NCBI RefSeq assembly: GCF_002855555.1
Contig: NZ_PKRT01000001.1
Location: 2,074,001 to 2,138,000 of the forward strand
Direction: 5' to 3'
From: Novosphingobium sp. TH158
GTDB lineage: Bacteria > Pseudomonadota > Alphaproteobacteria > Sphingomonadales > Sphingomonadaceae
DNA: 64,000 nucleotides
Each line of letters opens with the position of its first letter. Positions within the stretch are counted from its first letter, which is position 1. Below are positions 42,989 to 53,047 of this stretch, one piece after another. The notes under the pieces were generated by a model. It was not told where the DNA came from. It was given only the letters and a program-made list of their open reading frames with translations, and did not search any database. The position numbers were made by a program, and so were the translations under genes.

Positions 42989-43192
42989 ATGCTGATGTCT
43001 TCATCCGAACGTCTTGCCGTCCTGCGATACGAAGCCAATGGCTTCCGCGTCATAGCCCCTGGCACTCATGTTAAGTGCGCGGTCACGGGCGAGCCTATCC
43101 AGCTGGAAGTGCTGCGCTACTGGAGCGTCGAGCACCAGGAAGCCTATGCCACCTGCACCGTGGCCACCAAGCGGCTTGCGGAAGTGGACTGA
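42989..43192 (+). CDS. DUF2093 protein
   Basis: 67-residue conserved alphaproteobacterial protein (VLRYEANGFRVIAPGTHVKC, TGEPIQLEVLRYWSVEHQEA). Function unknown. It follows xseA by 27 nt and precedes the M23 gene by 1 nt, so the three are likely one transcript. ATGs at 42989 and 42995 are equivalent. Confidence 0.85.
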   Translation: MLMSSSERLAVLRYEANGFRVIAPGTHVKCAVTGEPIQLEVLRYWSVEHQEAYATCTVATKRLAEVD

Positions 43193-43193
43193 C

Positions 43194-44093
43194 ATGATCC
43201 GCAGCCTGGGCTCCGGCCCGGTGGCGGCAGCGGTGGTGCTGGCAGCCGGTTCGTGCAACGTCAGTGTCGCCATGGCGCAGCCGGTGCAGGCTCCGGCACC
43301 GGCCGCCGCTCCCTCGCTGCCTGTTCGCCTGGCCAATGACTTCACGCTGATCGGCCAGCAGGTCCAGGGCGGCTGGCTGCGTGGCTTGGCGCCCTTCGGC
43401 GCGCGATCGGTGGCTCTCGGTGGCAAGCCGGTAGAGCTTGAGCCCGACGGCAGCTTCTTCATCGCTTTCGATCGCGATTCCGGCCCCATGGCGGAACTTG
43501 TGGCGCGCCGGGGCGATCTGCCCGTCATCCGCCGCACGCTCTCCATCGCGCCGCGCGCCTGGCGGATCGAACATGTCAACGCCCCTTTCCGACCGCCCGG
43601 CCTGCCCGACGCCAGCTTCGCTGAAATTCGCGGGCGCGAACTGGCCATGATCGGTGCAGCGCGGGCCAGGTCCACCGATGCTGCCGGATGGCGGCAAGCA
43701 ATGGCCTGGCCCCTGAAGGGCGCATTGCGCGGCCGTTTCGGGTCTCAGCGGGTCTACCAGGGCAAGCCCGGCTCCTATCACGGCGGCCTGGACATCGCCG
43801 GCGCAAGCGGCACGCCATTCATGGCGCCGGCCGACGGGGTTGTCGTGCTTGCCACGGCGTCGCCCTTCACGCTTGAGGGCAACCTGCTGATCCTCGATCA
43901 CGGTGCGGGCCTCAGCAGCGCTTTCCTGCATTGCGCGCGCCTCGCCGTGCGCGAAGGCGACCGGGTGAAGCAAGGGCAGCTTGTCGGCTGGGTGGGGATG
44001 ACCGGGCGCGCCACCGGCCCGCACCTGCACTGGGCGCTCAAGTGGCGCGACGCGAAGCTCGATCCGCTGCTTTTCCTTCCGCCACAAGGGTAA
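43194..44093 (+). CDS. M23 (LytM-type) metallopeptidase
   Basis: 299 residues. Signal sequence through about 27, an N-terminal beta region, then the peptidase M23 domain with YHGGLDIAGASGTPF (H-x3-D metal ligands) and GPHLHWAL (H-x-H). Cleaves peptidoglycan cross-links or activates amidases at the envelope. The ATG sits one base after the DUF2093 stop. Confidence 0.9.
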   Translation: MIRSLGSGPVAAAVVLAAGSCNVSVAMAQPVQAPAPAAAPSLPVRLANDFTLIGQQVQGGWLRGLAPFGARSVALGGKPVELEPDGSFFIAFDRDSGPMAELVARRGDLPVIRRTLSIAPRAWRIEHVNAPFRPPGLPDASFAEIRGRELAMIGAARARSTDAAGWRQAMAWPLKGALRGRFGSQRVYQGKPGSYHGGLDIAGASGTPFMAPADGVVVLATASPFTLEGNLLILDHGAGLSSAFLHCARLAVREGDRVKQGQLVGWVGMTGRATGPHLHWALKWRDAKLDPLLFLPPQG

Positions 44094-44442: not shown

Positions 44443-47400
44443 ATGAGCCATCAGGAGCCCGTGAAACAAAGGGACTGGACTGTGAAAAAAACCACTCTTT
44501 CCGCGCTGAAAGCGGGTTCGGCACCGCTGGTGCTCGGCCTCGCGCTGATCAGCACCCAGGCTGCGGCGCAAGACGCTGCTGACGAAGCCGAAGACGACAA
44601 CGTGATCGTTGTTACCGGCTCGCTCATCAAGAATCCGAACCTCGTTCAGGCGAACCCGGTCAACGTGACCACGTCGGAAACGATCGAACTCAAGCAGTCC
44701 AACCTCGCTGAAGAAGTTCTGCGCGAGATCCCGGGCTTCGTTCCGAACATCGGTTCGGCCGTCAACAACGGTAACGGCGGTTCGTCCTACGTCGACCTTC
44801 GCGGTCTCGGCTCGACCCGCAACGTCGTCCTGCTCGACGGCAACCGCATCGTGCCGGTTGACCTCAGCGGCCGCGCTGACCTCAACAACATCCCGCTGGC
44901 CCTGATCAGCCGCGTTGACTCGCAGACCGGCGCTGCCGTGACCACCTACGGTGCGGACGCCATCACCGGCGTCGTCAACTTCGTCACCAAGAAGGACTTC
45001 GCCGGCGTTGACCTGTCGCTCAGCGACCAGATCACCGAAAAGGGCGACGGCAACTTCTTCCGTGCCGACCTCACCGTTGGTGCGAACTTCGAAGACGGCC
45101 GCGGCAACGCCGTGCTGTCGATCGGTTACCAGAAGTCCGACCCGGTCTACCAGGGCGACCGTGACTTCTCGATCGACCAGATCAGTTCCTACACCGGCGG
45201 CGCCGGCGGTTCGGGTACCTCGGTCCCCAGCCGTTTCGCTGGCACGCGTCCGCTGATCTCGGGCACCACCACGCCGAACACCACTCCGGAATCGCTGTGG
45301 GGCGGCCTGCGTAACCCCGATGGTACGCCGATCTACACGACCAACACGGGCGGCGCCTCCAACGGCGGCCTGCGCCAGGTCAACGCAGCGGGCGCCGGCG
45401 TCGGCACCTTCGCGTTCTTCAACTTCAATCCGTACAATATCTTCCAGACGCCGTTCAAGCGTTACAACATCTTCGCCCAGGCGAACTACGAGATCTCGGA
45501 TTCGGTTGAAGTCTACACCCGCGGCCTGTTCTCGAAGAACACCGTTTCGACCATCATCGCGCCTTCGGGCTCGTTCGGCGGTTCGGTGAACATCAACCTG
45601 AACAACCCGTTCCTGCCGGCGACCCTGCGCAACCAGTTCTGCGCATTCGACGTCAACCCGCGTCCGGACATCTACACCCCGCGCTTCGACACCGCGACCT
45701 GCGCCGCTGCGGCGCTGGCCACCGGTCCGAGCGATCCGCGCTATCGCGTGATCGGCGCCGGCGGCACCACCGTCGCGTTCGACGTGAACAACGATGGCGT
45801 GATCTCGGCTGGCGAAGGCTACAACCCGAACCCGGCAATCACCTTCAACCGTCGTTCGGTCGAAGTCGGTCCGCGCGTCAGCGATTACTCGACCACCACC
45901 TTCGACTACCGCGTCGGCCTGCGTGGCCGCCTGACCGACTCGATCGATTGGGACGTCAACGCTTCGTACGGTGAATCGGAAAAGGTCCAGACGATCAAGG
46001 GTTACACCCTGCAGTCGCGCTGGCGCCAGGGCGCCCTGGTTGACGGCACGGCCGCCAACCCGGTCTGCACCAACACGGCCAATGGCTGCGTTCCGATCAA
46101 CCTGTTCGGCGATGCCGGTTCGATCACCCCGGCCATGGCGCAGTTCCTGACCGCGAACAGCACCACCCAGGTCAAGACCGCACTCACCCAGGTTCGCGGC
46201 CTCGTCAGCGGCGACCTGCCGCTGAACCTCGCCACCAACCCGGTAAGCTTCGCTCTTGGTGCCGAATACCGCGACTACACCGCCCAGCAGGCTTCGGACA
46301 CGCTGGCCAAGACCCCGGGTGAACTCGGTGGTGCGGGCGGCGCTGCTCCGGACATCAACGGTGGCTACAACGTCTGGGAAGCCTACGCCGAGCTCGTCGC
46401 TCCGCTGGTCGAAGACGCTGCTTTCGCCAAGAGCATCACGCTCGACGGCGGCGTGCGCTATTCGAAGTACAAGATCGATGGCGCTGGCAGCACCGAAACC
46501 TGGACCTACAAGGCCGGTCTCGCCTGGGAAATCAACGACGACCTGAAGCTGCGCGGCAACTACGCTCACGCTGTTCGTGCACCGAACATCTTCGAGCTGT
46601 TCAACCCGCTCACCGTCGGCCTGACCAACCTGGGTATCGACCCCTGCGCCGGCACCGCGCCGGTCAGCAACGCCAACCTGCGCGCAATCTGTCTTGCACA
46701 GGGCGCTCCGCTTGGCACCATCGGTTCGATCACCAACCCGACTGCGGCTCAGGCCAACATCGCCACCGGCGGTAACCTGAACCTCACGCCGGAAACCGCC
46801 AACACCTGGACGGTCGGTGCGGTCTTCCAGCCGTCGTTCCTGCCGCGCTTCTCGATGTCTGTGGACTACTACAACATCAAGGTGACGGACGTGATCGGCG
46901 CGCCGCTTCCGGGCGACCTGATCTCGGCCTGCTTCGGCAGCATCAGCGCCTCCAGCGCGACGAACCCGGCTTGTACGGTTATCCGTCGTAACCCGATCAC
47001 CGGCGGACTCGACGGCGACCCGGCCATCACGCAGGGCCTCTTCGCCCCGCTTGACAACCTGGGCAAGCTCTCGACCGACGGTATCGACCTGGTCATGAAC
47101 TACAACCACGAGTTCGGCGACGTGAAGTGGTCTTCCAGCTTCACCGGCAACTGGACGAACAGCTCGAAGTTCCAGGCTACCCCGACCGGCCTGAACCGCG
47201 AGTGCGTTGGCTTCTACTCGGTGAACTGCTCGTTCACCGGTTCGATCCAGCCGAAGTGGCAGTTCTCCTGGCGCAACACGCTGAGCTACGGCAAGTTCGA
47301 CTTCTCGCTCCTGTGGCGTTGGGTTGACTCGGTTCAGTTCGAACCCCAGCAGCTGGCAGATGACGCTGCGGCGGCCGATGCGGCCAACCGCAACTCGGCT

Positions 47401-47733
47401 GGCGTGCTGCTGCCCGTCAGCCTGGCGTCCTCGGCAATCGGCAACGCTGCCTTCCAGCAGTGCCCGAACTATGCCACCAGCGACGACTTCGGCTGTATGG
47501 TTGAGCCCGAGTTCCGCAAGATCAAGGCTCACAGCTACTTCGACATCACCATGCGTTGGAACGTGAACGACAACTTCACCTTCACCTTCGGTGTGCAGAA
47601 CCTGCTGAACAAGAAGCCGCCGATCGTCGGCAACACGATCGGTTCGACCTCGTACAACAGCGGCAACACCTACCCGTCGACCTACGACGCTCTGGGCCGT
47701 CGCTTCGCCGTATCGGGCAAGGTCAAGTTCTGA
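44443..47733 (+). CDS. TonB-dependent outer membrane receptor
   Basis: 1096 residues. Signal region KKTTLSALKAGSAPLVLGLALI, TonB-box-like DNVIVVTGSL, plug domain (about 60-185; GSSYVDLRGLGSTRNVVLLD), then a large beta-barrel ending GRRFAVSGKVKF with terminal Phe. An extracellular-loop segment, DVNNDGVISAGE (447-458), is a complete EF-hand-type Ca2+ loop. Codons lean to GGT, GCT, GTT, AAG more than neighbours, as in highly expressed genes. ATG 44443, GTG 44461 and GTG 44482 are possible starts; the last has AAAGGGA at good spacing. Ligand unknown. Confidence 0.93.
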   Translation: MSHQEPVKQRDWTVKKTTLSALKAGSAPLVLGLALISTQAAAQDAADEAEDDNVIVVTGSLIKNPNLVQANPVNVTTSETIELKQSNLAEEVLREIPGFVPNIGSAVNNGNGGSSYVDLRGLGSTRNVVLLDGNRIVPVDLSGRADLNNIPLALISRVDSQTGAAVTTYGADAITGVVNFVTKKDFAGVDLSLSDQITEKGDGNFFRADLTVGANFEDGRGNAVLSIGYQKSDPVYQGDRDFSIDQISSYTGGAGGSGTSVPSRFAGTRPLISGTTTPNTTPESLWGGLRNPDGTPIYTTNTGGASNGGLRQVNAAGAGVGTFAFFNFNPYNIFQTPFKRYNIFAQANYEISDSVEVYTRGLFSKNTVSTIIAPSGSFGGSVNINLNNPFLPATLRNQFCAFDVNPRPDIYTPRFDTATCAAAALATGPSDPRYRVIGAGGTTVAFDVNNDGVISAGEGYNPNPAITFNRRSVEVGPRVSDYSTTTFDYRVGLRGRLTDSIDWDVNASYGESEKVQTIKGYTLQSRWRQGALVDGTAANPVCTNTANGCVPINLFGDAGSITPAMAQFLTANSTTQVKTALTQVRGLVSGDLPLNLATNPVSFALGAEYRDYTAQQASDTLAKTPGELGGAGGAAPDINGGYNVWEAYAELVAPLVEDAAFAKSITLDGGVRYSKYKIDGAGSTETWTYKAGLAWEINDDLKLRGNYAHAVRAPNIFELFNPLTVGLTNLGIDPCAGTAPVSNANLRAICLAQGAPLGTIGSITNPTAAQANIATGGNLNLTPETANTWTVGAVFQPSFLPRFSMSVDYYNIKVTDVIGAPLPGDLISACFGSISASSATNPACTVIRRNPITGGLDGDPAITQGLFAPLDNLGKLSTDGIDLVMNYNHEFGDVKWSSSFTGNWTNSSKFQATPTGLNRECVGFYSVNCSFTGSIQPKWQFSWRNTLSYGKFDFSLLWRWVDSVQFEPQQLADDAAAADAANRNSAGVLLPVSLASSAIGNAAFQQCPNYATSDDFGCMVEPEFRKIKAHSYFDITMRWNVNDNFTFTFGVQNLLNKKPPIVGNTIGSTSYNSGNTYPSTYDALGRRFAVSGKVKF

Positions 47734-47757
47734 TCGCTTAGGCGAGACGAAAAGAAT

Positions 47758-47787
47758 GGGGGCGGGCAGCAATGCCCGCCCCTTTTT
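47758..47787 (+). terminator. Intrinsic terminator after TonB receptor
   Basis: GGGGCGGGC (47759-47767) and GCCCGCCCC (47774-47782) around AGCAAT, then TTTTT. It separates the receptor from the sulfotransferase gene, so the latter needs readthrough or its own promoter. Confidence 0.92.
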
Positions 47788-47829
47788 CATGCGCTTGACA
47801 CCGGGGCGGACCCGCTTCCTAGTGCGCGG

Positions 47830-49413
47830 GTGATCTCTCCCGAACTTGCCGCTGCCGCCGCTCAGTCAAAAGCCGCGTATGATGCCGGTCGCGCGGACGG
47901 CTACGATCACATGATCCTTGCCCTGGCGCAGCAAGCGCAAGGCAACCTCGATTCCGCCGAAGAGCTTTTCCGCAAGGCCATGGCCTTCGGACCGGACGAC
48001 CCTTCCGTACTGGCAGGGCGTGCAAAATTCCTGCGGGAAACCGGTCGGCTCAGCGAAGCCGTCGCCACGTGCGACCGCGCCATCACGCTTGCCCCCCAAT
48101 ATGCCGACGCATGGATCGAACGCGGCGCGATCCTGAGTGCCGGGGGCTCAAACCGGGAAGCCCGAGCCAGCTATGCCCGCGCCATCGCCTTGGCGCCCGA
48201 CGCGGTGCCGGCCCACGCCGGGATTGCCTCGCTTGCCGCGCGAGAGGGAGATGGCGAAACCGCCCGGACACACGCCGGGATCGCGCTGTCGATCGATCCC
48301 GGCAACGCCGTCGCCGCCGCCGCGCTCGCCACGGTCGAACTGGAAAGCGGCGAACCTGCAAGGGCCGCCGCCCTGCTGGAGCCTATCGTTGCCGCGCGCC
48401 TGCAGCCGGATTTCGAGCGCTCGCTTGCGGCCGGCCTGCTTGGCGATGCCCGTCACCGTCTGGGCGACCATGCCGGCGCATACGAAGCCTACCGGCTCAG
48501 CAAGGCGGACTTTGCGGCGATCCACGCACCTGCTGCAAAAGGCCGCATGCGGCACTTCGAATTCATCGAGGCCATCCACACCGGACTTTCCGCGATGGAT
48601 CTCGCGCAGGAGAAGGCGATTCGACCAGCGCCGGTGCCGGGGGAAGCCGAACGGCATATTTTCCTGATCGGCTACCCGCGCTCAGGCACGACACTGATGG
48701 AAAACGTCCTGGCTTCGCTGCCGGGGGTCGAGGCTCTCGAAGAGCGGCCGACCCTTTCGGAAGCGGACCGAGCCCTGCTCTCGGGCGATGCCGGTGAAAT
48801 CGCCGCCACCCTGGCGCGATTCGCTACTGTCGGCGAGGAACAGCTGAATGTCTGGCGGACCGCCTATTGGGCCAAGGTCGTCCAGTCGGGCATTACCCCC
48901 GGCACGCGCGCCTTTGTCGATATGGACCCGCTCAAGGGCACGCGCCTGCCGCTTATCGCGCGGCTGTTCCCGGAGGCCCGGATCGTCATCATGCGTCGCG
49001 ATCCCCGCGATGTCGTGTGGTCCTGCTTCCGCACTCAGTTCGCGATGACCAGCGGCACCCTCGACTTCACGACGCTTCAGGATACCGCGCGCCATTATGA
49101 TGCCTTAATGCGGCTTACCGAGCACTCATTGCAGCGCCTGCCGTTGACCACGTTCGAGGTTCACTATCACCGGCTTGTCCGGGATTTCGAACCGACCACA
49201 CGGGCGTTGTGCCAATTCCTCGGGCTCGAATGGGATGACGCAGTCCTGCAATTCGACCGGACGGCACGCCAGCGCGGCGTGGCGACGGCAAGCGTCGGTC
49301 AGGTCCGGCGAGGGCTCTATGACGGGACGCGGCAGTGGGAGCCCTATGCCCAATGGCTCGAACCGGTGATGCCCGTGCTGCAGCCGTGGGTGGAAAAGTT
49401 CGGTTACGCCTGA
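47830..49413 (+). CDS. TPR-containing sulfotransferase
   Basis: 527 residues. TPR repeats fill about 25-235 (NLDSAEELFRKAMAFGPDDP, RLSEAVATCDRAITLAPQYA). The sulfotransferase domain follows: 5'-PSB loop IGYPRSGTTLMEN (281-291 region) and RDPRDVVWSCFRTQF as the 3'-PB motif. It would use PAPS to sulfate a protein or small molecule. TPRs suggest a peptide or protein substrate. GTG start. It ends overlapping the convergent P-loop gene by 10 nt. Confidence 0.88.
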   Translation: MISPELAAAAAQSKAAYDAGRADGYDHMILALAQQAQGNLDSAEELFRKAMAFGPDDPSVLAGRAKFLRETGRLSEAVATCDRAITLAPQYADAWIERGAILSAGGSNREARASYARAIALAPDAVPAHAGIASLAAREGDGETARTHAGIALSIDPGNAVAAAALATVELESGEPARAAALLEPIVAARLQPDFERSLAAGLLGDARHRLGDHAGAYEAYRLSKADFAAIHAPAAKGRMRHFEFIEAIHTGLSAMDLAQEKAIRPAPVPGEAERHIFLIGYPRSGTTLMENVLASLPGVEALEERPTLSEADRALLSGDAGEIAATLARFATVGEEQLNVWRTAYWAKVVQSGITPGTRAFVDMDPLKGTRLPLIARLFPEARIVIMRRDPRDVVWSCFRTQFAMTSGTLDFTTLQDTARHYDALMRLTEHSLQRLPLTTFEVHYHRLVRDFEPTTRALCQFLGLEWDDAVLQFDRTARQRGVATASVGQVRRGLYDGTRQWEPYAQWLEPVMPVLQPWVEKFGYA

Positions 49414-50417
49414 ACAAGCGAATTGGGGGCCGCCAGCCCTATACCCGCCGCCTTGGCGACTGCTTCTGCCCAGCTGGCAACCATGCCGATTTCTTCACCG
49501 TGGGCGGCACGGACGCGGGCGTAGTCTTCTGCGCGTCGTTCTGCCGAATAGGAGTCGCCTGATTTGGAATGCCGGGAGAAGTTCGCTTTGGCCGCGACCG
49601 CCGCCGGGTCCAGCGAAAGTCCGTAATGCGCGGCCACGGCAGCGATGGCCGTTTGCGGGTCGGCAATCATGCGGTCAGCGTCAAGGCTGGCAAGGCGCGG
49701 CCCGACCCGCTCAGCCAGGGCCGCAAACAGGCGGTGCTGTGCCAGCCAGCCGATGGCCGCAACCTGCAGGTCGCTGTGCAGGAAATGGTCCTCCGCGGTA
49801 AAGCCCATGCCCTCTGCCACGCCTTCGCGGAGATAGCCGGCCAGCAGTTCGCGGACCCAGATCCGGCAATGCAGGCCCTTGTTCGCCACCGAGACAAGAA
49901 AGGTCTCCAGCGGAGCGTGGAGGAACACGGCCTGCGCCTTCGGCCGCAAGGCCATCAGCAGGGGGGCGAGCGGATTGACCACGTTCGACGGCTTGACGAT
50001 CACCGCCTCACCCTGGCCGAAGGGCCGTCCAATCAGCCTCGTCGCGATGTCTGCCATGCGGGCCACGGCCCGTGGATCGGCCCCGCGCCGGCGAAAGCCT
50101 ACCACGTCATTGAGCACCTGCGGTTCGCTCAGCCCCATGGAGACCCCGGCAACGTCGAGTGCGCGGACCAGCAGGGTGGAGCCGCAGAAGGCCGAATGAA
50201 ACAGGAAGTGCAGCGGCACATCCCCGGTCAATCCCAGGCATTGCTCTGCCGCAACGTCGCCGCCCTGTGCGCAGGATCCAAGGTAGTCGTCGGTCAGGAA
50301 GGGCGCTGCCTCGTGCGCTTTGCGTTCAAGGCGCAGGAAACGAAAAGCGTCGTCGCTTTCGACGTAGCGGTGCGCCAGCCATTCAGGATCGCGGAGCAGG
50401 TCGGCCGCCATGGTCAT
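49404..50417 (-). CDS. Sulfotransferase-like P-loop protein
   Basis: 337 residues. HSAFCGSTLLVRALD (74-88) resembles the PAPS-binding loop of sulfotransferases, and FLHAPLETFLVSVANKGLHC the next core strand/helix; overall weaker than the neighbouring sulfotransferase. The C-terminal half is helical (SGDSYSAERRAEDYARVR). Function uncertain. Start at 50417 or 50411. It faces the TPR-sulfotransferase and is divergent from the hydroxylase gene across 91 bp. Confidence 0.7.
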   Translation of the reverse strand: MTMAADLLRDPEWLAHRYVESDDAFRFLRLERKAHEAAPFLTDDYLGSCAQGGDVAAEQCLGLTGDVPLHFLFHSAFCGSTLLVRALDVAGVSMGLSEPQVLNDVVGFRRRGADPRAVARMADIATRLIGRPFGQGEAVIVKPSNVVNPLAPLLMALRPKAQAVFLHAPLETFLVSVANKGLHCRIWVRELLAGYLREGVAEGMGFTAEDHFLHSDLQVAAIGWLAQHRLFAALAERVGPRLASLDADRMIADPQTAIAAVAAHYGLSLDPAAVAAKANFSRHSKSGDSYSAERRAEDYARVRAAHGEEIGMVASWAEAVAKAAGIGLAAPNSLVQA

Positions 50418-50508
50418 CGGCCAGACCCTAGGCAGGCTTTCCCGCCGCTGCAACCCGCTTGCCTCGGGGTGATGCGTGGCATATCCATAGGGCCAAGGGG
50501 GCAGATAT
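50418..50508. promoter_or_regulatory. Divergent promoter region
   Basis: 91 bp between the P-loop gene (-) and the hydroxylase gene (+). It must hold at least one promoter for each. GGGGGCAGATAT before the + ATG gives a ribosome site; I cannot name -35/-10 boxes confidently. Confidence 0.35.
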
Positions 50509-51690
50509 ATGAGCGATCCAGCGCTTGCGCAGGAGGCGAACGCGCAGGGCATGGCTGCAATGCGTGCCGGCGACCCGGTTGGGGCGGCGCAGGCATTCGC
50601 CCGTGCGGCAGAGGCCGATCCAGCCGCCCTCCCCTTGTGGACCAATCTGGCGCACGCTTGGCGTCTTGCCGGTAATGCGGCAGCGGAAAAGGCGGCATTG
50701 GAACGCGCCCTTGCCCTCGACCGCACCGATTTCGGCGCCCAGCTGCGCATGGCGCAGGTGCTTCAGCGAATGGGCGAGGAAACCCAGGCGCTGATTGCGT
50801 GGAGCGGTGTGCAGCAACTTGCTGCGCAGATGCCCGGTCTGGCGCCGCAGGTCGTCGAGGAACTCGATCACGGACGCGCCTACTGCCGGCAATTGCAGGA
50901 GCGGCTCTATCAGGGGATTGATGCGGCCCTGCAGGGGCAGGCTGCCGACTGGGACGAAACCGAGAGCCGGCGCATCCGCGCCTTTGTGGATACGGCCCTG
51001 GGCAAACGCCAGGTTTTCCATAACCAGTGCGCCGGCGCCTATTATCCTTTCATCCCCGAAGACGAATTCTTTGACCGGCGGCATTTCCCCTGGCTCGATG
51101 AGCTCGAGGCCCACCATGCGGTGATCAAGGCGGAGCTGGAAGCCCTGCTTGCCGATCCGGGCGATGTGATCCGCCCTTACGTCCAGATGGATGAAGGCAC
51201 CCCGCAAAGCCAGTGGAGCAAGCTTGATGGCTCGCTCGATTGGGCGGCCTGCTTCCTGTGGGAGTACGGTCGCAAGAACCTGCCGGTAACCGATCGCTGC
51301 CCGCAGACTGCGGCCCTGCTTGAACGGCTTCCGCTGGCGCGGATTCCGGGGCGTGCGCCGAATGCCTTCTTCTCGATGCTCAAGCCGCACAGCCACATCC
51401 CGCCGCATACCGGCGTGACGAACACGCGCGCGATCATCCACCTGGCGCTCGATATCCCTCCCGGCTGCACCTTCCGCGTCGGCAACGAGACGCGTGCCTG
51501 GGAAGAGGGCAAGGCCTTTGCCTTCGACGACACCATCGATCACGAGGCGGTGAATCCCTCCGACCGAAGGCGGGCGGTGCTGATCCTCGATACCTGGAAC
51601 CCGCACCTGACCGAGCGGGAGCGCGGGGCACTGGTCGACTATTTCGTCGCGGCGGACGGCGCGCTGGCAGGCACCTCGCCACTGGCCTGA
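50509..51690 (+). CDS. TPR-aspartyl/asparaginyl beta-hydroxylase
   Basis: 393 residues. N-terminal TPRs (about 5-110) and a C-terminal double-stranded beta-helix of the aspartyl/asparaginyl beta-hydroxylase family. Fe(II) His300 in HIPPHTGVTNTR and His345 in DDTIDHEAVNPSDRRR; Arg355, ten residues after the second His, fits the 2-oxoglutarate ligand spacing. No signal peptide or membrane anchor, unlike many eukaryotic relatives. It would hydroxylate Asp/Asn of a protein, chosen perhaps via the TPRs. Confidence 0.87.
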   Translation: MSDPALAQEANAQGMAAMRAGDPVGAAQAFARAAEADPAALPLWTNLAHAWRLAGNAAAEKAALERALALDRTDFGAQLRMAQVLQRMGEETQALIAWSGVQQLAAQMPGLAPQVVEELDHGRAYCRQLQERLYQGIDAALQGQAADWDETESRRIRAFVDTALGKRQVFHNQCAGAYYPFIPEDEFFDRRHFPWLDELEAHHAVIKAELEALLADPGDVIRPYVQMDEGTPQSQWSKLDGSLDWAACFLWEYGRKNLPVTDRCPQTAALLERLPLARIPGRAPNAFFSMLKPHSHIPPHTGVTNTRAIIHLALDIPPGCTFRVGNETRAWEEGKAFAFDDTIDHEAVNPSDRRRAVLILDTWNPHLTERERGALVDYFVAADGALAGTSPLA

Positions 51691-51751
51691 GCTCTTGCCC
51701 GTGCCCGATTGCGGGTCTAATCTGCTGGTTTGAACCGACAGGAGGTGCTCG

Positions 51752-52054
51752 ATGCGCTTTTCCGCCTTTGCCGTGCTGCTGGCTGTTTCGACCGCCGCCG
51801 GTGCCGCACCTGAACTGACAACCGGCCCGATCAAGATGAAGCCGTCAGAGATCAAGGCCTACAACGCCAGCCTGACCAAGGAGCACCCCAATTATATCCG
51901 CTGCCGCCGCGAGCGGGAAACCGGATCGCTGGTCAAGGGCAAGATGACCTGCCGCACGAACCAGGAATGGGCGCGCATCGAGGGCATCGGGAACGACAGT
52001 GCTCGCGAGGCGGTTGAAGGCCTGCAAAAGGGCTGGTCGAACGGCCAGAACTGA
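51752..52054 (+). CDS. Small exported protein, paralogue A
   Basis: 100 residues. Signal peptide MRFSAFAVLLAVSTAAGA, then a compact domain with two Cys in YIRCRRERETGSLVKG and KMTCRTNQEW. Family not recognised. The next gene is a clear tandem paralogue. CAGGAGG precedes the ATG. Located 61 nt after the hydroxylase gene on the same strand. Confidence 0.8.
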   Translation: MRFSAFAVLLAVSTAAGAAPELTTGPIKMKPSEIKAYNASLTKEHPNYIRCRRERETGSLVKGKMTCRTNQEWARIEGIGNDSAREAVEGLQKGWSNGQN

Positions 52055-52071
52055 TAATCCGGGAGATGCCC

Positions 52072-52380
52072 ATGTCTTTCCTGCTGTCCATGCTCCTCGG
52101 CGCTGCTGAAGCGGCCACCCCGGCAACTCCGGTGGTGCTCGTCGAACCCGACCCCAAGGTGATGTCGCAAAAACAGATCCGCGCCTTCAACGCCAATCTC
52201 GACAAGAAGCACCCGTTCTATATCCGCTGCGTCAGCTCGCCCGAGATCGGGTCGCTGGTGAAGCGGCTCTATTCCTGCCGGACGAACCGGCAGTGGGAAG
52301 CGTCTGACGAGACCGGCAACCGCAATGCTCGCGAAACCTACGAAGCGATGCAGGGCAAGTTCTGGAACACGTCCGAATAG
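52072..52380 (+). CDS. Small exported protein, paralogue B
   Basis: 102 residues. Signal peptide MSFLLSMLLGAAEA, then the same pattern as paralogue A: IRAFNANLDKKHPFYIRC, EIGSLVKRLYSCRTNRQW, and a shared N-x-x-A-R-E-x-x-E-x-(x)-Q-K/G-x end. The GGGAG at 52061-52065 abuts an ATG at 52066, so 52072 is the better start. 17 nt after paralogue A. Confidence 0.8.
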   Translation: MSFLLSMLLGAAEAATPATPVVLVEPDPKVMSQKQIRAFNANLDKKHPFYIRCVSSPEIGSLVKRLYSCRTNRQWEASDETGNRNARETYEAMQGKFWNTSE

Positions 52381-52395: not shown

Positions 52396-52929
52396 CTAGT
52401 CGGGCAGGCGAATCACGCGCACGCCGGGCTGGTCGTTCACATTGGCCATGAAGCTGCCAAGCGCGGCGCGTTTCACCACGATCTTCTGTCCGGGCTTGGG
52501 ATAGGTGTAGCGTCCGTCGGTCTGCTTCCAGCGTGATCCGTCAGCCAGCACGAAAACCGACATGCCGTCCTTGGCCGAACTGGTGCCGGAGATCGTGCTT
52601 TCGATCTGGTTCACTTCGACATCGTCGTTGCCGCCGAACAGCTTGATGCGGGGCAGGCTGATGCCGAACAGGCCGCGCTTGGTTTCCCGGATTGTCGCGC
52701 GGTCGATAACCACCACGTCCTTCTTCTGCGTGGCATCGGCCATGGCCGTTACGGACCGGTCAAAGCAGGCCAGCCGGGCAGCGGCATCCGTGATCTTCTG
52801 GCAGTCCAGCACGGCCTGGTACGTGGCTGGCGGGGCCGTGCCCGGTTCTTCCTTGTCCTTGGCCAGCGCCGGCGCGGCAAGAGCGACGAGGGCGGCGGCG
52901 CAAAGCGGCAGGCGAACGGGAATGGGCAT
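52396..52929 (-). CDS. Exported protein of unknown function
   Basis: 177 residues. Signal peptide MPIPVRLPLCAAALVALAAPALA. Cysteines in VLDCQKITDAAARLACFD look like a disulfide helical hairpin, then a beta-rich part (GLFGISLPRIKLFGGNDD, GSRWKQTDGRYTYPKPGQKI). The hairpin pattern recalls small periplasmic proteins seen in phage and secretion contexts, but I cannot name it. Convergent with the paralogue pair. Confidence 0.72.
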   Translation of the reverse strand: MPIPVRLPLCAAALVALAAPALAKDKEEPGTAPPATYQAVLDCQKITDAAARLACFDRSVTAMADATQKKDVVVIDRATIRETKRGLFGISLPRIKLFGGNDDVEVNQIESTISGTSSAKDGMSVFVLADGSRWKQTDGRYTYPKPGQKIVVKRAALGSFMANVNDQPGVRVIRLPD

Positions 52930-53020
52930 GGACGGCTCCCCTGAAGCGGTTGGAATGCCATGGCTGGCAGAACCGCGCTGGGCCGTCAACGTGCCTGAGA
53001 TGGCTTGCCGGGCACCATGC

Positions 53021-53047
53021 AAAAAGGCGCCCGGAAACCCGGACGCC
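53021..53047 (-). terminator. Intrinsic terminator of rpmB
   Basis: Minus strand GGCGTCCGG and CCGGGCGCC around GTTT, followed by TTTTT, 26 nt after the rpmB stop. Confidence 0.85.

What the first reader, a model, noticed from the sequence alone, without database searches (positions are those of the whole stretch)
44443..52380. TonB receptor with sulfotransferase and Asp/Asn-hydroxylase genes: candidate receptor-modification system
One locus joins a large TonB receptor, a TPR-sulfotransferase with an intact PAPS loop, a second sulfotransferase-like P-loop protein, a TPR-Asp/Asn beta-hydroxylase with His300/His345/Arg355 spacing, and two small exported proteins. Both enzymes have TPRs and neither has an export signal, so they could modify a protein (receptor or small exported partners) before secretion. 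No standard pathway explains the set. The receptor has its own terminator, so coupling would be functional rather than one transcript.
Basis: partly seen in the sequence, partly recalled or inferred. Interest (0 to 1): 0.7.

Follow-up and report, generated by a model that had tools for sequence, protein, structure and literature searches.

The report
Receptor genes with protein-modifying enzymes
A bacterial outer-membrane uptake receptor travels through evolution with a hydroxylase and sulfotransferases resembling the human enzymes that modify secreted proteins, which suggests these bacteria chemically decorate a surface receptor or its small partner protein before exporting it.

Summary
Of 80 named Sphingomonadales loci centred on the TPR-Asp/Asn hydroxylase (AspH; the 80 closest of at least 594), 74 hold a TonB receptor, 74 the second sulfotransferase (ST2) and 70 a small exported S protein behind AspH; 4 of the 6 without receptor are cut by a contig end. 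In an AspH tree receptor linkage marks one of two clades: 40 of 46 rows against 4 of 22. Other gene orders recur in other families of the class.

AspH's nearest solved relative is human AspH, with its iron and most 2-oxoglutarate residues kept. ST2 has no Pfam family; its model is nearest to tyrosylprotein sulfotransferases. The TPR-sulfotransferase is less constant (20 of 80) and lacks a usual lysine. S stands behind the receptor even where AspH and ST2 are absent, so it belongs to the receptor.

Best reading: cytoplasmic enzymes modify the receptor, or less likely S, before export. No modified residue was identified; candidates did not track the enzymes cleanly.

The parts
44443..47733 (+). 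TonB-dependent receptor (1096 aa), centre of the module
   Evidence: Plug E 4.3e-17 and beta-barrel E 1.3e-37; six conserved cysteine pairs' worth of Cys columns at 100% in relatives
47758..47783 (+). intrinsic-terminator-like hairpin behind the receptor
   Evidence: 11 pairs, 9 G-C, then TTTT; consensus match only
47830..49413 (+). TPR-sulfotransferase (527 aa, GTG start), optional member
   Evidence: Sulfotransfer_3 E 3.7e-34 and TPRs; best solved relative of the catalytic part is TPST2, E 9.6e-12; R284, E305, R390, S398 kept, M365 where distant TPR-sulfotransferases have Lys
49404..50417 (-). ST2, sulfotransferase-fold protein of a family without a Pfam entry (337 aa)
   Evidence: 52-row alignment with invariant H74 S75 C78 S80 T81 E98 K142 S176; model pLDDT 95.2, nearest TPST1 at Z 15.6
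50418..50508 (.). 91-bp spacer between the divergent starts of ST2 and AspH
   Evidence: divergent ST2/AspH order in 74 of 80 named loci
50509..51690 (+). TPR-Asp/Asn beta-hydroxylase, AspH clade A (393 aa)
   Evidence: Asp_Arg_Hydrox E 3.9e-42; human AspH E 1.7e-28; H300, H345, R355, S289, H311 invariant in 12 rows
51752..52054 (+). S1, small exported protein (100 aa)
   Evidence: S family, C..GS..C..W core; hydrophobic N-terminus
52066..52380 (+). S2, small exported protein, paralogue of S1 (104 aa)
   Evidence: 45% identical to S1 over 9-101; model: beta-hairpin and C-terminal helix, pLDDT 84
52396..53022 (-). VasI-like exported protein, recurrent neighbour of the receptor (start probably internal)
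   Evidence: VasI E 0.0022, below Pfam's cut-off; recurs beside the receptor in relatives
43068..44093 (+). M23 peptidase, syntenic neighbour upstream of the receptor
   Evidence: Peptidase_M23 E 4.5e-27; purD-xseA-M23 order kept in 40 of 59 named loci with 9 kb on both sides

Best explanation
The locus is a receptor module with its own protein-modifying enzymes. The core is a TonB receptor with a small exported partner (S). AspH and ST2, joined in some lineages by a TPR-sulfotransferase, work in the cytoplasm: the TPR part of AspH holds an unfolded pre-protein, the oxygenase part hydroxylates an Asp or Asn, and ST2 transfers sulfate from PAPS to a residue, most likely Tyr. The product is then exported by Sec and, if it is the receptor, folded into the outer membrane with the modified residues on its outer face, where they would tune ligand or metal binding or evade phage or bacteriocin binding. 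Shown: gene identities, conservation of the linkage, folds, most active-site residues, no export signal on the enzymes, an APS kinase for making PAPS in the genome. Inferred: catalysis, that the substrate is a protein, that it is the receptor rather than S, the residue, and the benefit.
For: Linkage: TBDR in 74, ST2 in 74, S in 70 of 80 named loci; of 59 loci with 9 kb on both sides, 58 have a TBDR, 18 of these away from purD-xseA-M23, so the unit is kept at different sites. AspH clade A 40 of 46 linked, clade B 4 of 22; 11 label changes against a shuffled mean of 20.1, 0 of 500 as low. Among 59 family genomes ST2 (42% identity or more) is in 11, all 11 with the receptor (E 1e-100 or better), against 9 of the other 48; Fisher p 6e-7, not corrected for kinship, cut-offs chosen by me. 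In G001 the receptor and the ST2/AspH/S block lie on different contigs, yet both are present (41-row L041). Other orders in other families of the class: AspH-TBDR-TPRST-TPRST, AspH-TPRST-TBDR, TBDR-TPRST-AspH, ST2like-AspH-TPRST-TBDR. Enzyme kinship: human AspH, TPST2 for the TPR-sulfotransferase, TPST1/2 for the ST2 model. [quoted passage not shown]
Against: No modified residue or activity is shown. Receptor residues that are fixed with the enzymes do not track them cleanly: D488 (79 of 79) and Y521 (78 of 79) stay in four loci whose genomes gave no ST2 hit, and G046, which has an unlinked AspH of clade A, has Q488 and N521. The deeper receptors next to AspH have Arg at 488. The AspH-free receptors lie outside the AspH-linked clade, so the contrast is confounded by descent. 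ST2 has Phe or Tyr where TPST has its PAPS-binding Arg, and the TPR-sulfotransferase has Met for the usual Lys, so either could be weak or inactive. AspH has Ile309 where human AspH has Arg688.
Confidence: 0.48

Rival explanations
1. The small S proteins are the substrate: AspH and the sulfotransferases tailor a secreted small protein or peptide, RiPP-like, which the receptor binds or takes back up.
For: S follows AspH directly in 70 of 80 loci and multiplies to three or more copies in Sphingopyxis loci. In G001 S stays with AspH/ST2 although the receptor is elsewhere. A published cluster table for Pontixanthobacter lists consecutively numbered families lasso peptide B2, sulfotransferase, aspartyl beta-hydroxylase, sulfotransferase, PqqD, asparagine synthase, which looks like a peptide cluster with the same enzyme types (PMC10040529, passages only). 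Methanobactin operons join a precursor peptide, a sulfotransferase and a TonB transporter (PMC3621798, passages only).
Against: S sits behind the receptor in 5 loci without AspH or ST2 (L161-L165); none of these 5 genomes gave an ST2 hit and 4 of 5 gave no hit to the AspH catalytic domain, G004 having a distant one (33%) elsewhere. S is absent behind AspH in 10 of 80 loci, one of them contig-cut. S is a folded two-Cys protein in the model. By eye no Asp, Asn or Tyr of S is peculiar to AspH-bearing loci.
Confidence: 0.22
2. The enzymes modify a small molecule, lipid or glycan that the receptor binds or imports, such as a siderophore or surface glycolipid.
For: The Asp_Arg_Hydrox family includes lipid hydroxylases: OlsC 86.7 bits and LpxO 51 bits against this protein. 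Sulfotransferases of this genome are many (12 PF13469 places) and most act on unknown substrates.
Against: Both lipid-hydroxylase scores are far below their cut-offs of 450 and 500. A TPR part in front of the oxygenase is the architecture of human AspH, where it binds the protein substrate. None of the nine genes scanned is a biosynthetic enzyme other than those named; the other genes of the window were not scanned.
Confidence: 0.16
3. Shared descent of one chromosomal neighbourhood, without functional coupling.
For: Most loci are the same purD-xseA-M23 site (40 of 59), and the 80 named loci are the closest relatives, not a random sample.
Against: The unit keeps together at 18 other sites, gene order changes while adjacency stays, and the sister clade B of AspH is mostly unlinked (18 of 22).
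Confidence: 0.06

Closest known systems
[quoted passage not shown]
   Same: TPR domain followed by an Asp_Arg_Hydrox oxygenase; best solved match E 1.7e-28; His679, His725, Arg735, Ser668, His690 have counterparts H300, H345, R355, S289, H311
   Different: No export signal or membrane anchor, cytoplasmic; Arg688 is Ile309; no EGF domains in the locus; substrate unknown
Tyrosylprotein sulfotransferases (human TPST1/2; bacterial RaxST)
   Same: ST2 model best at Z 15.6 to TPST1 with 229 residues aligned; TPR-sulfotransferase catalytic part best to TPST2. RaxST acts in the cytoplasm before secretion
   Different: ST2 only 11% identical to TPST1 and without the Arg of the PAPS loop; Foldseek's own best hit is STF1 of M. 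tuberculosis, E 2.4e-4; no RaxX or RaxA/B-like partner was looked for
LpxO / OlsC lipid hydroxylases
   Same: Same oxygenase family
   Different: Scores far below the curated cut-offs; TPR domain present here
Methanobactin operons with MbnS sulfotransferase and TonB-dependent transporter
   Same: A sulfotransferase gene beside a TonB transporter and a small peptide gene (passages)
   Different: No search for MbnB or MbnC was made; S is a signal-peptide protein kept next to the receptor without the enzymes

Membership tests
AspH-type protein Asp/Asn hydroxylases | Asp_Arg_Hydrox oxygenase fold with two-His iron site and Arg/Ser for 2-oxoglutarate | tested here: met
   Pfam E 3.9e-42; H300, H345, R355, S289, H311 invariant in 12 rows, matched to human residues through
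AspH-type protein Asp/Asn hydroxylases | Arg688, which binds the 2-oxoglutarate oxalate end in human AspH | tested here: not met
   Ile309 at this place
AspH-type protein Asp/Asn hydroxylases | TPR domain in front of the oxygenase | tested here: met
   TPR_19 E 1.9e-5 at 17-57, just over its cut-off (25.4 against 25 bits), others weaker
AspH-type protein Asp/Asn hydroxylases | hydroxylation of Asp/Asn in a protein | not testable with these tools
   needs biochemistry
LpxO / OlsC | NCBIfam curated cut-off | tested here: not met
   LpxO 51 of 500 bits, OlsC 86.7 of 450 bits
Sulfotransferase superfamily (ST2) | sulfotransferase fold | tested here: met
   model pLDDT 95.2; the listed Z 10.6-15.6 rows are all sulfotransferases or close kin such as heparan N-deacetylase/N-sulfotransferase; Foldseek 5 matches at E 0.001 or better, all sulfotransferases
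Sulfotransferase superfamily (ST2) | match to a Pfam or NCBIfam sulfotransferase model | tested here: not met
   0 families for the window protein; of 52 members only unrelated single weak matches
Tyrosylprotein sulfotransferases (ST2) | PAPS-loop Arg, catalytic Glu, Lys, and 3'-phosphate Ser (residue roles recalled for TPST2) | tested here: inconclusive
   Glu98, Lys142, Ser176 in 52 of 52; Phe/Tyr (34/18) instead of Arg; register supported by hhalign with the TPR-sulfotransferase domain, probability 59%
Tyrosylprotein sulfotransferases (TPR-sulfotransferase) | same four residues | tested here: inconclusive
   R284, E305, S398 kept in the 13 rows; Met instead of Lys in those 13 and in the 12 close rows that one search had dropped
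TonB-dependent receptors | Plug plus beta-barrel above Pfam cut-offs | tested here: met
   63 of 23.9 and 131.2 of 27 bits
Methanobactin operons | MbnB and MbnC | not tested
   no search made
raxX-raxSTAB | RaxX peptide and RaxA/RaxB export | not tested
   no search made

The most novel reading that the evidence does not exclude
A conserved alphaproteobacterial system that installs two eukaryote-like secretory-pathway marks, Asp/Asn hydroxylation and Tyr sulfation, on a TonB receptor in the cytoplasm before export, with ST2 as the founder of an unnamed family of protein sulfotransferases. D488 and Y489/Y521 on the receptor's predicted outer side would be the first residues to examine.
Probability: 0.32. 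Interest if true: 0.85.

Novelty: new variant of a known kind. Interest (0 to 1): 0.62.

Why it matters
If true, outer-membrane receptors, doors for nutrients, phages and antibiotics, can carry stable chemical marks made by dedicated neighbours of their genes. That would give bacteria a counterpart of the AspH and tyrosine-sulfation marks on animal secreted proteins, a bacterial substrate for the AspH family, and a named conserved family (ST2) that annotation now misses. The system is in culturable, non-pathogenic genera, so it is directly testable by mass spectrometry.

Tried and rejected
Residue test: columns at 90% or more in 79 enzyme-linked receptors and at most a third in 6 others gave 21 sites; the D/N/Y ones (N366, D488, Y521, N886) do not follow ST2 or AspH exactly, and none lies inside a Cys loop, so an EGF-like Cys-loop target is not singled out. 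One search gave 0 of 6 genomes with ST2; the tool warns that no positive genome was in that call.

S fold: no PDB match at E 0.001 or better. ST2 by profile against PDB: none at E 0.1; single-sequence phmmer gave 2zq5 at E 0.0045.

The giant open frame of the receptor in G020 (L076) is a run of N, not a fusion. In one search my ST2 query was out of frame; its ST2 rows are ignored and one search replaces them. In one search a motif filter dropped 12 of 25 close TPR-sulfotransferases (those with RSGNT in place of RSGTT); one search read them. In one search only every fourth of the named loci, all other AspH rows of 280 aa or more except L049, entered the tree (68 of 129 plus window); some links there are weak (L201 and L202 with the receptor 7-8 kb off at the edge, L205 a 42-bit match). 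In one search the L076 receptor and those under 750 bits were left out. L086 was missed by the ST2 rule and added. One of the six 'AspH-free' receptors (L164, G004) is from a genome with a distant AspH elsewhere.

Literature: 10 searches found no paper on this gene set; one search lists all 13 papers holding both 'TonB-dependent receptor' and 'sulfotransferase' in the library; only PMC10040529 of these was looked into (passages). Read: PMC9372746 section 4 and passages; passages of PMC6817910, PMC13168262, PMC10040529, PMC3621798. TPST2 residue numbers (R78, E99, K158) and their roles are recalled, since the structure paper is not held.
Full report
What is there. The window holds, in order, purD (-), xseA (+), an M23 peptidase (+), the TonB receptor (+), a hairpin terminator, the TPR-sulfotransferase (+), ST2 (-), TPR-AspH (+), S1 (+), S2 (+) and a VasI-like exported protein (-). 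ST2 overlaps the end of the TPR-sulfotransferase by 10 bp and starts 91 bp from AspH on the other strand. The window is G000:C1:2074001-2138000 of a 2.98-Mb genome with 12 Sulfotransfer_3 places, 26 Plug places, two Asp_Arg_Hydrox genes and one APS kinase.

Conservation. A scan of genome contigs with a 12-row AspH alignment returned the best 80 of at least 594 relatives. Their neighbourhoods: TBDR within 3 kb in 73 and within the stretch in 74; the six misses are L085, L114, L130, L136 (contig ends) and L124, L127 (about 10 kb upstream held, no receptor). ST2 next to AspH in 74 (73 by rule, L086 by reading); misses L114, L130 (contig ends), L123, L145, L152, L160. S behind AspH in 70. Close TPR-sulfotransferase in 20, a distant one in 7 others, which include L145, L152 and L160. 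Of 59 loci with 9 kb on both sides, 40 are at the purD-xseA-M23 site, 18 have the receptor at other sites, and one (L127) has none. These loci are near relatives and not independent samples.

In an evenly drawn set of 59 family genomes, AspH of 44% identity or more occurs in 15; by my reading the receptor lies beside it in 13 (not in G001 and G046; in G007 both genes are broken by frameshifts). ST2 of 42% or more occurs in 11 genomes, all with the receptor; the receptor also occurs in 9 genomes without it. Fisher p is 6e-7 for ST2 and 4e-4 for AspH with the receptor; kinship is not corrected for and I set the cut-offs after seeing the tables.

AspH tree. The tree splits with support 100/99 into clade A (46 rows, 40 linked to a receptor within 10 kb) and clade B (22 rows, 4 linked). 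Of the 6 unlinked in A, two are contig-cut (L114, L136). Of the 4 linked in B, three lie in loci of the full unit (L043, L048, L076). The own genome's second AspH is in B and sits among rho, hemE, mnmE and mnmG-like genes (names from sequence starts, by recall). Clade A includes families f5, f74, f114 and f158 of the class. There, L178, L179, L199 and L200 combine the receptor, AspH and TPR-sulfotransferase in four different orders. For the TPR-sulfotransferase alone the link is looser: of 20 fetched phylum loci, 8 have a receptor match in the stretch, some distant or weak (L190, L196, L197), and 12 do not.

The small proteins. The S family has four invariant residues (two Cys, Gly, Ser) in 50 rows, and a conserved Thr and Trp. 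It stands directly behind the receptor in L161-L165, loci without AspH or ST2. So S is a receptor partner first. Its model is a beta-hairpin and a long helix without a PDB match.

The enzymes. AspH: human AspH is the best solved match; the residues that the human structure paper gives for iron (His679, His725), 2-oxoglutarate (Arg735, Ser668, His690) are kept, Arg688 is not. The same paper shows the TPR domain is needed for hydroxylating the protein substrate. ST2: no Pfam or NCBIfam model, model of high confidence; VIA-align ranks 1-7 are all tyrosylprotein sulfotransferases (Z 15.6 to 14.5), with other sulfotransferases close behind (13.8 and below; the last TPST rows and the next ones are tied), while Foldseek puts STF1 and a curacin domain first. 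Glu98 and Lys142 are invariant in 52 rows, Phe or Tyr replaces the loop Arg. The TPR-sulfotransferase shows the mirror image: Arg and Glu kept, Met for Lys in 25 of 25 close rows, counting 13 and 12, against Lys in 30 of 33 distant ones. Whether both are active is open. ST2 alone must suffice in the 54 or so loci with ST2 and no close TPR-sulfotransferase.

Which protein? All three enzymes lack an export signal. Receptor and S are exported, so they would meet the enzymes only before export. The receptor is my first choice because ST2 is found only where it is (11 of 11), including G001 where they are unlinked, and because S persists without the enzymes. A search for enzyme-dependent residues gave D488 (79 of 79 D; N, Q or D in 6 others), Y489 (71 of 79) and Y521 (78 of 79; never Tyr in the 6) on what I read, from strand pattern alone, as the outer side of neighbouring strands. 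Against them: loci with AspH but without ST2 keep both, G046 with an unlinked AspH lacks both, and the deeper AspH-linked receptors have Arg488. G001, with unlinked enzymes, keeps both. I treat them as leads only.

Known or not. Ten full-text searches found nothing on this set (listed under tried and rejected). The nearest precedents are RaxST, which sulfates RaxX in the cytoplasm before secretion, with the remark that bacterial TPST genes are often beside genes for extracytoplasmic proteins (PMC9372746), methanobactin operons, and a lasso-like cluster with a sulfotransferase and an aspartyl hydroxylase in a published table. The families are known; the receptor-linked combination and ST2 as a family appear undescribed in the searched library.

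Noticed in passing
G000:C1:2068839-2069948 (-), L070:9828-10955: Second TPR-AspH of this genome, clade B, between rho-like and mnmE-like housekeeping genes, not beside a receptor.
   Followed up: partly
L118, L119, L122, L125, L129, L134, L144 (Sphingopyxis loci): The S family is expanded to about three tandem copies behind AspH (four matches in L118), against two in the window.
   Followed up: partly
window 47830-49413 and 49404-50417: Complementary active-site changes: the TPR-sulfotransferase keeps Arg/Glu but has Met for Lys, ST2 keeps Glu/Lys but has Phe/Tyr for Arg.
   Followed up: partly
L145, L152, L160, L132, L140, L143, L155: A distant TPR-sulfotransferase stands convergent to AspH where S usually is; in L145, L152 and L160 ST2 is missing as well, as if one sulfotransferase replaced the other.
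   Followed up: no
L079 (G007): Receptor and AspH are broken by frameshifts together in a genome of 86% completeness, either decay of the unit or sequencing error.
   Followed up: no
G000, whole genome: Twelve Sulfotransfer_3 places in a 3-Mb genome, an unusual number; several lie within 10 kb of a Plug place.
   Followed up: no
PMC10040529 Table 2: Pontixanthobacter gene families 1738-1748 read like a lasso-peptide cluster with sulfotransferases and an aspartyl beta-hydroxylase.
   Followed up: no
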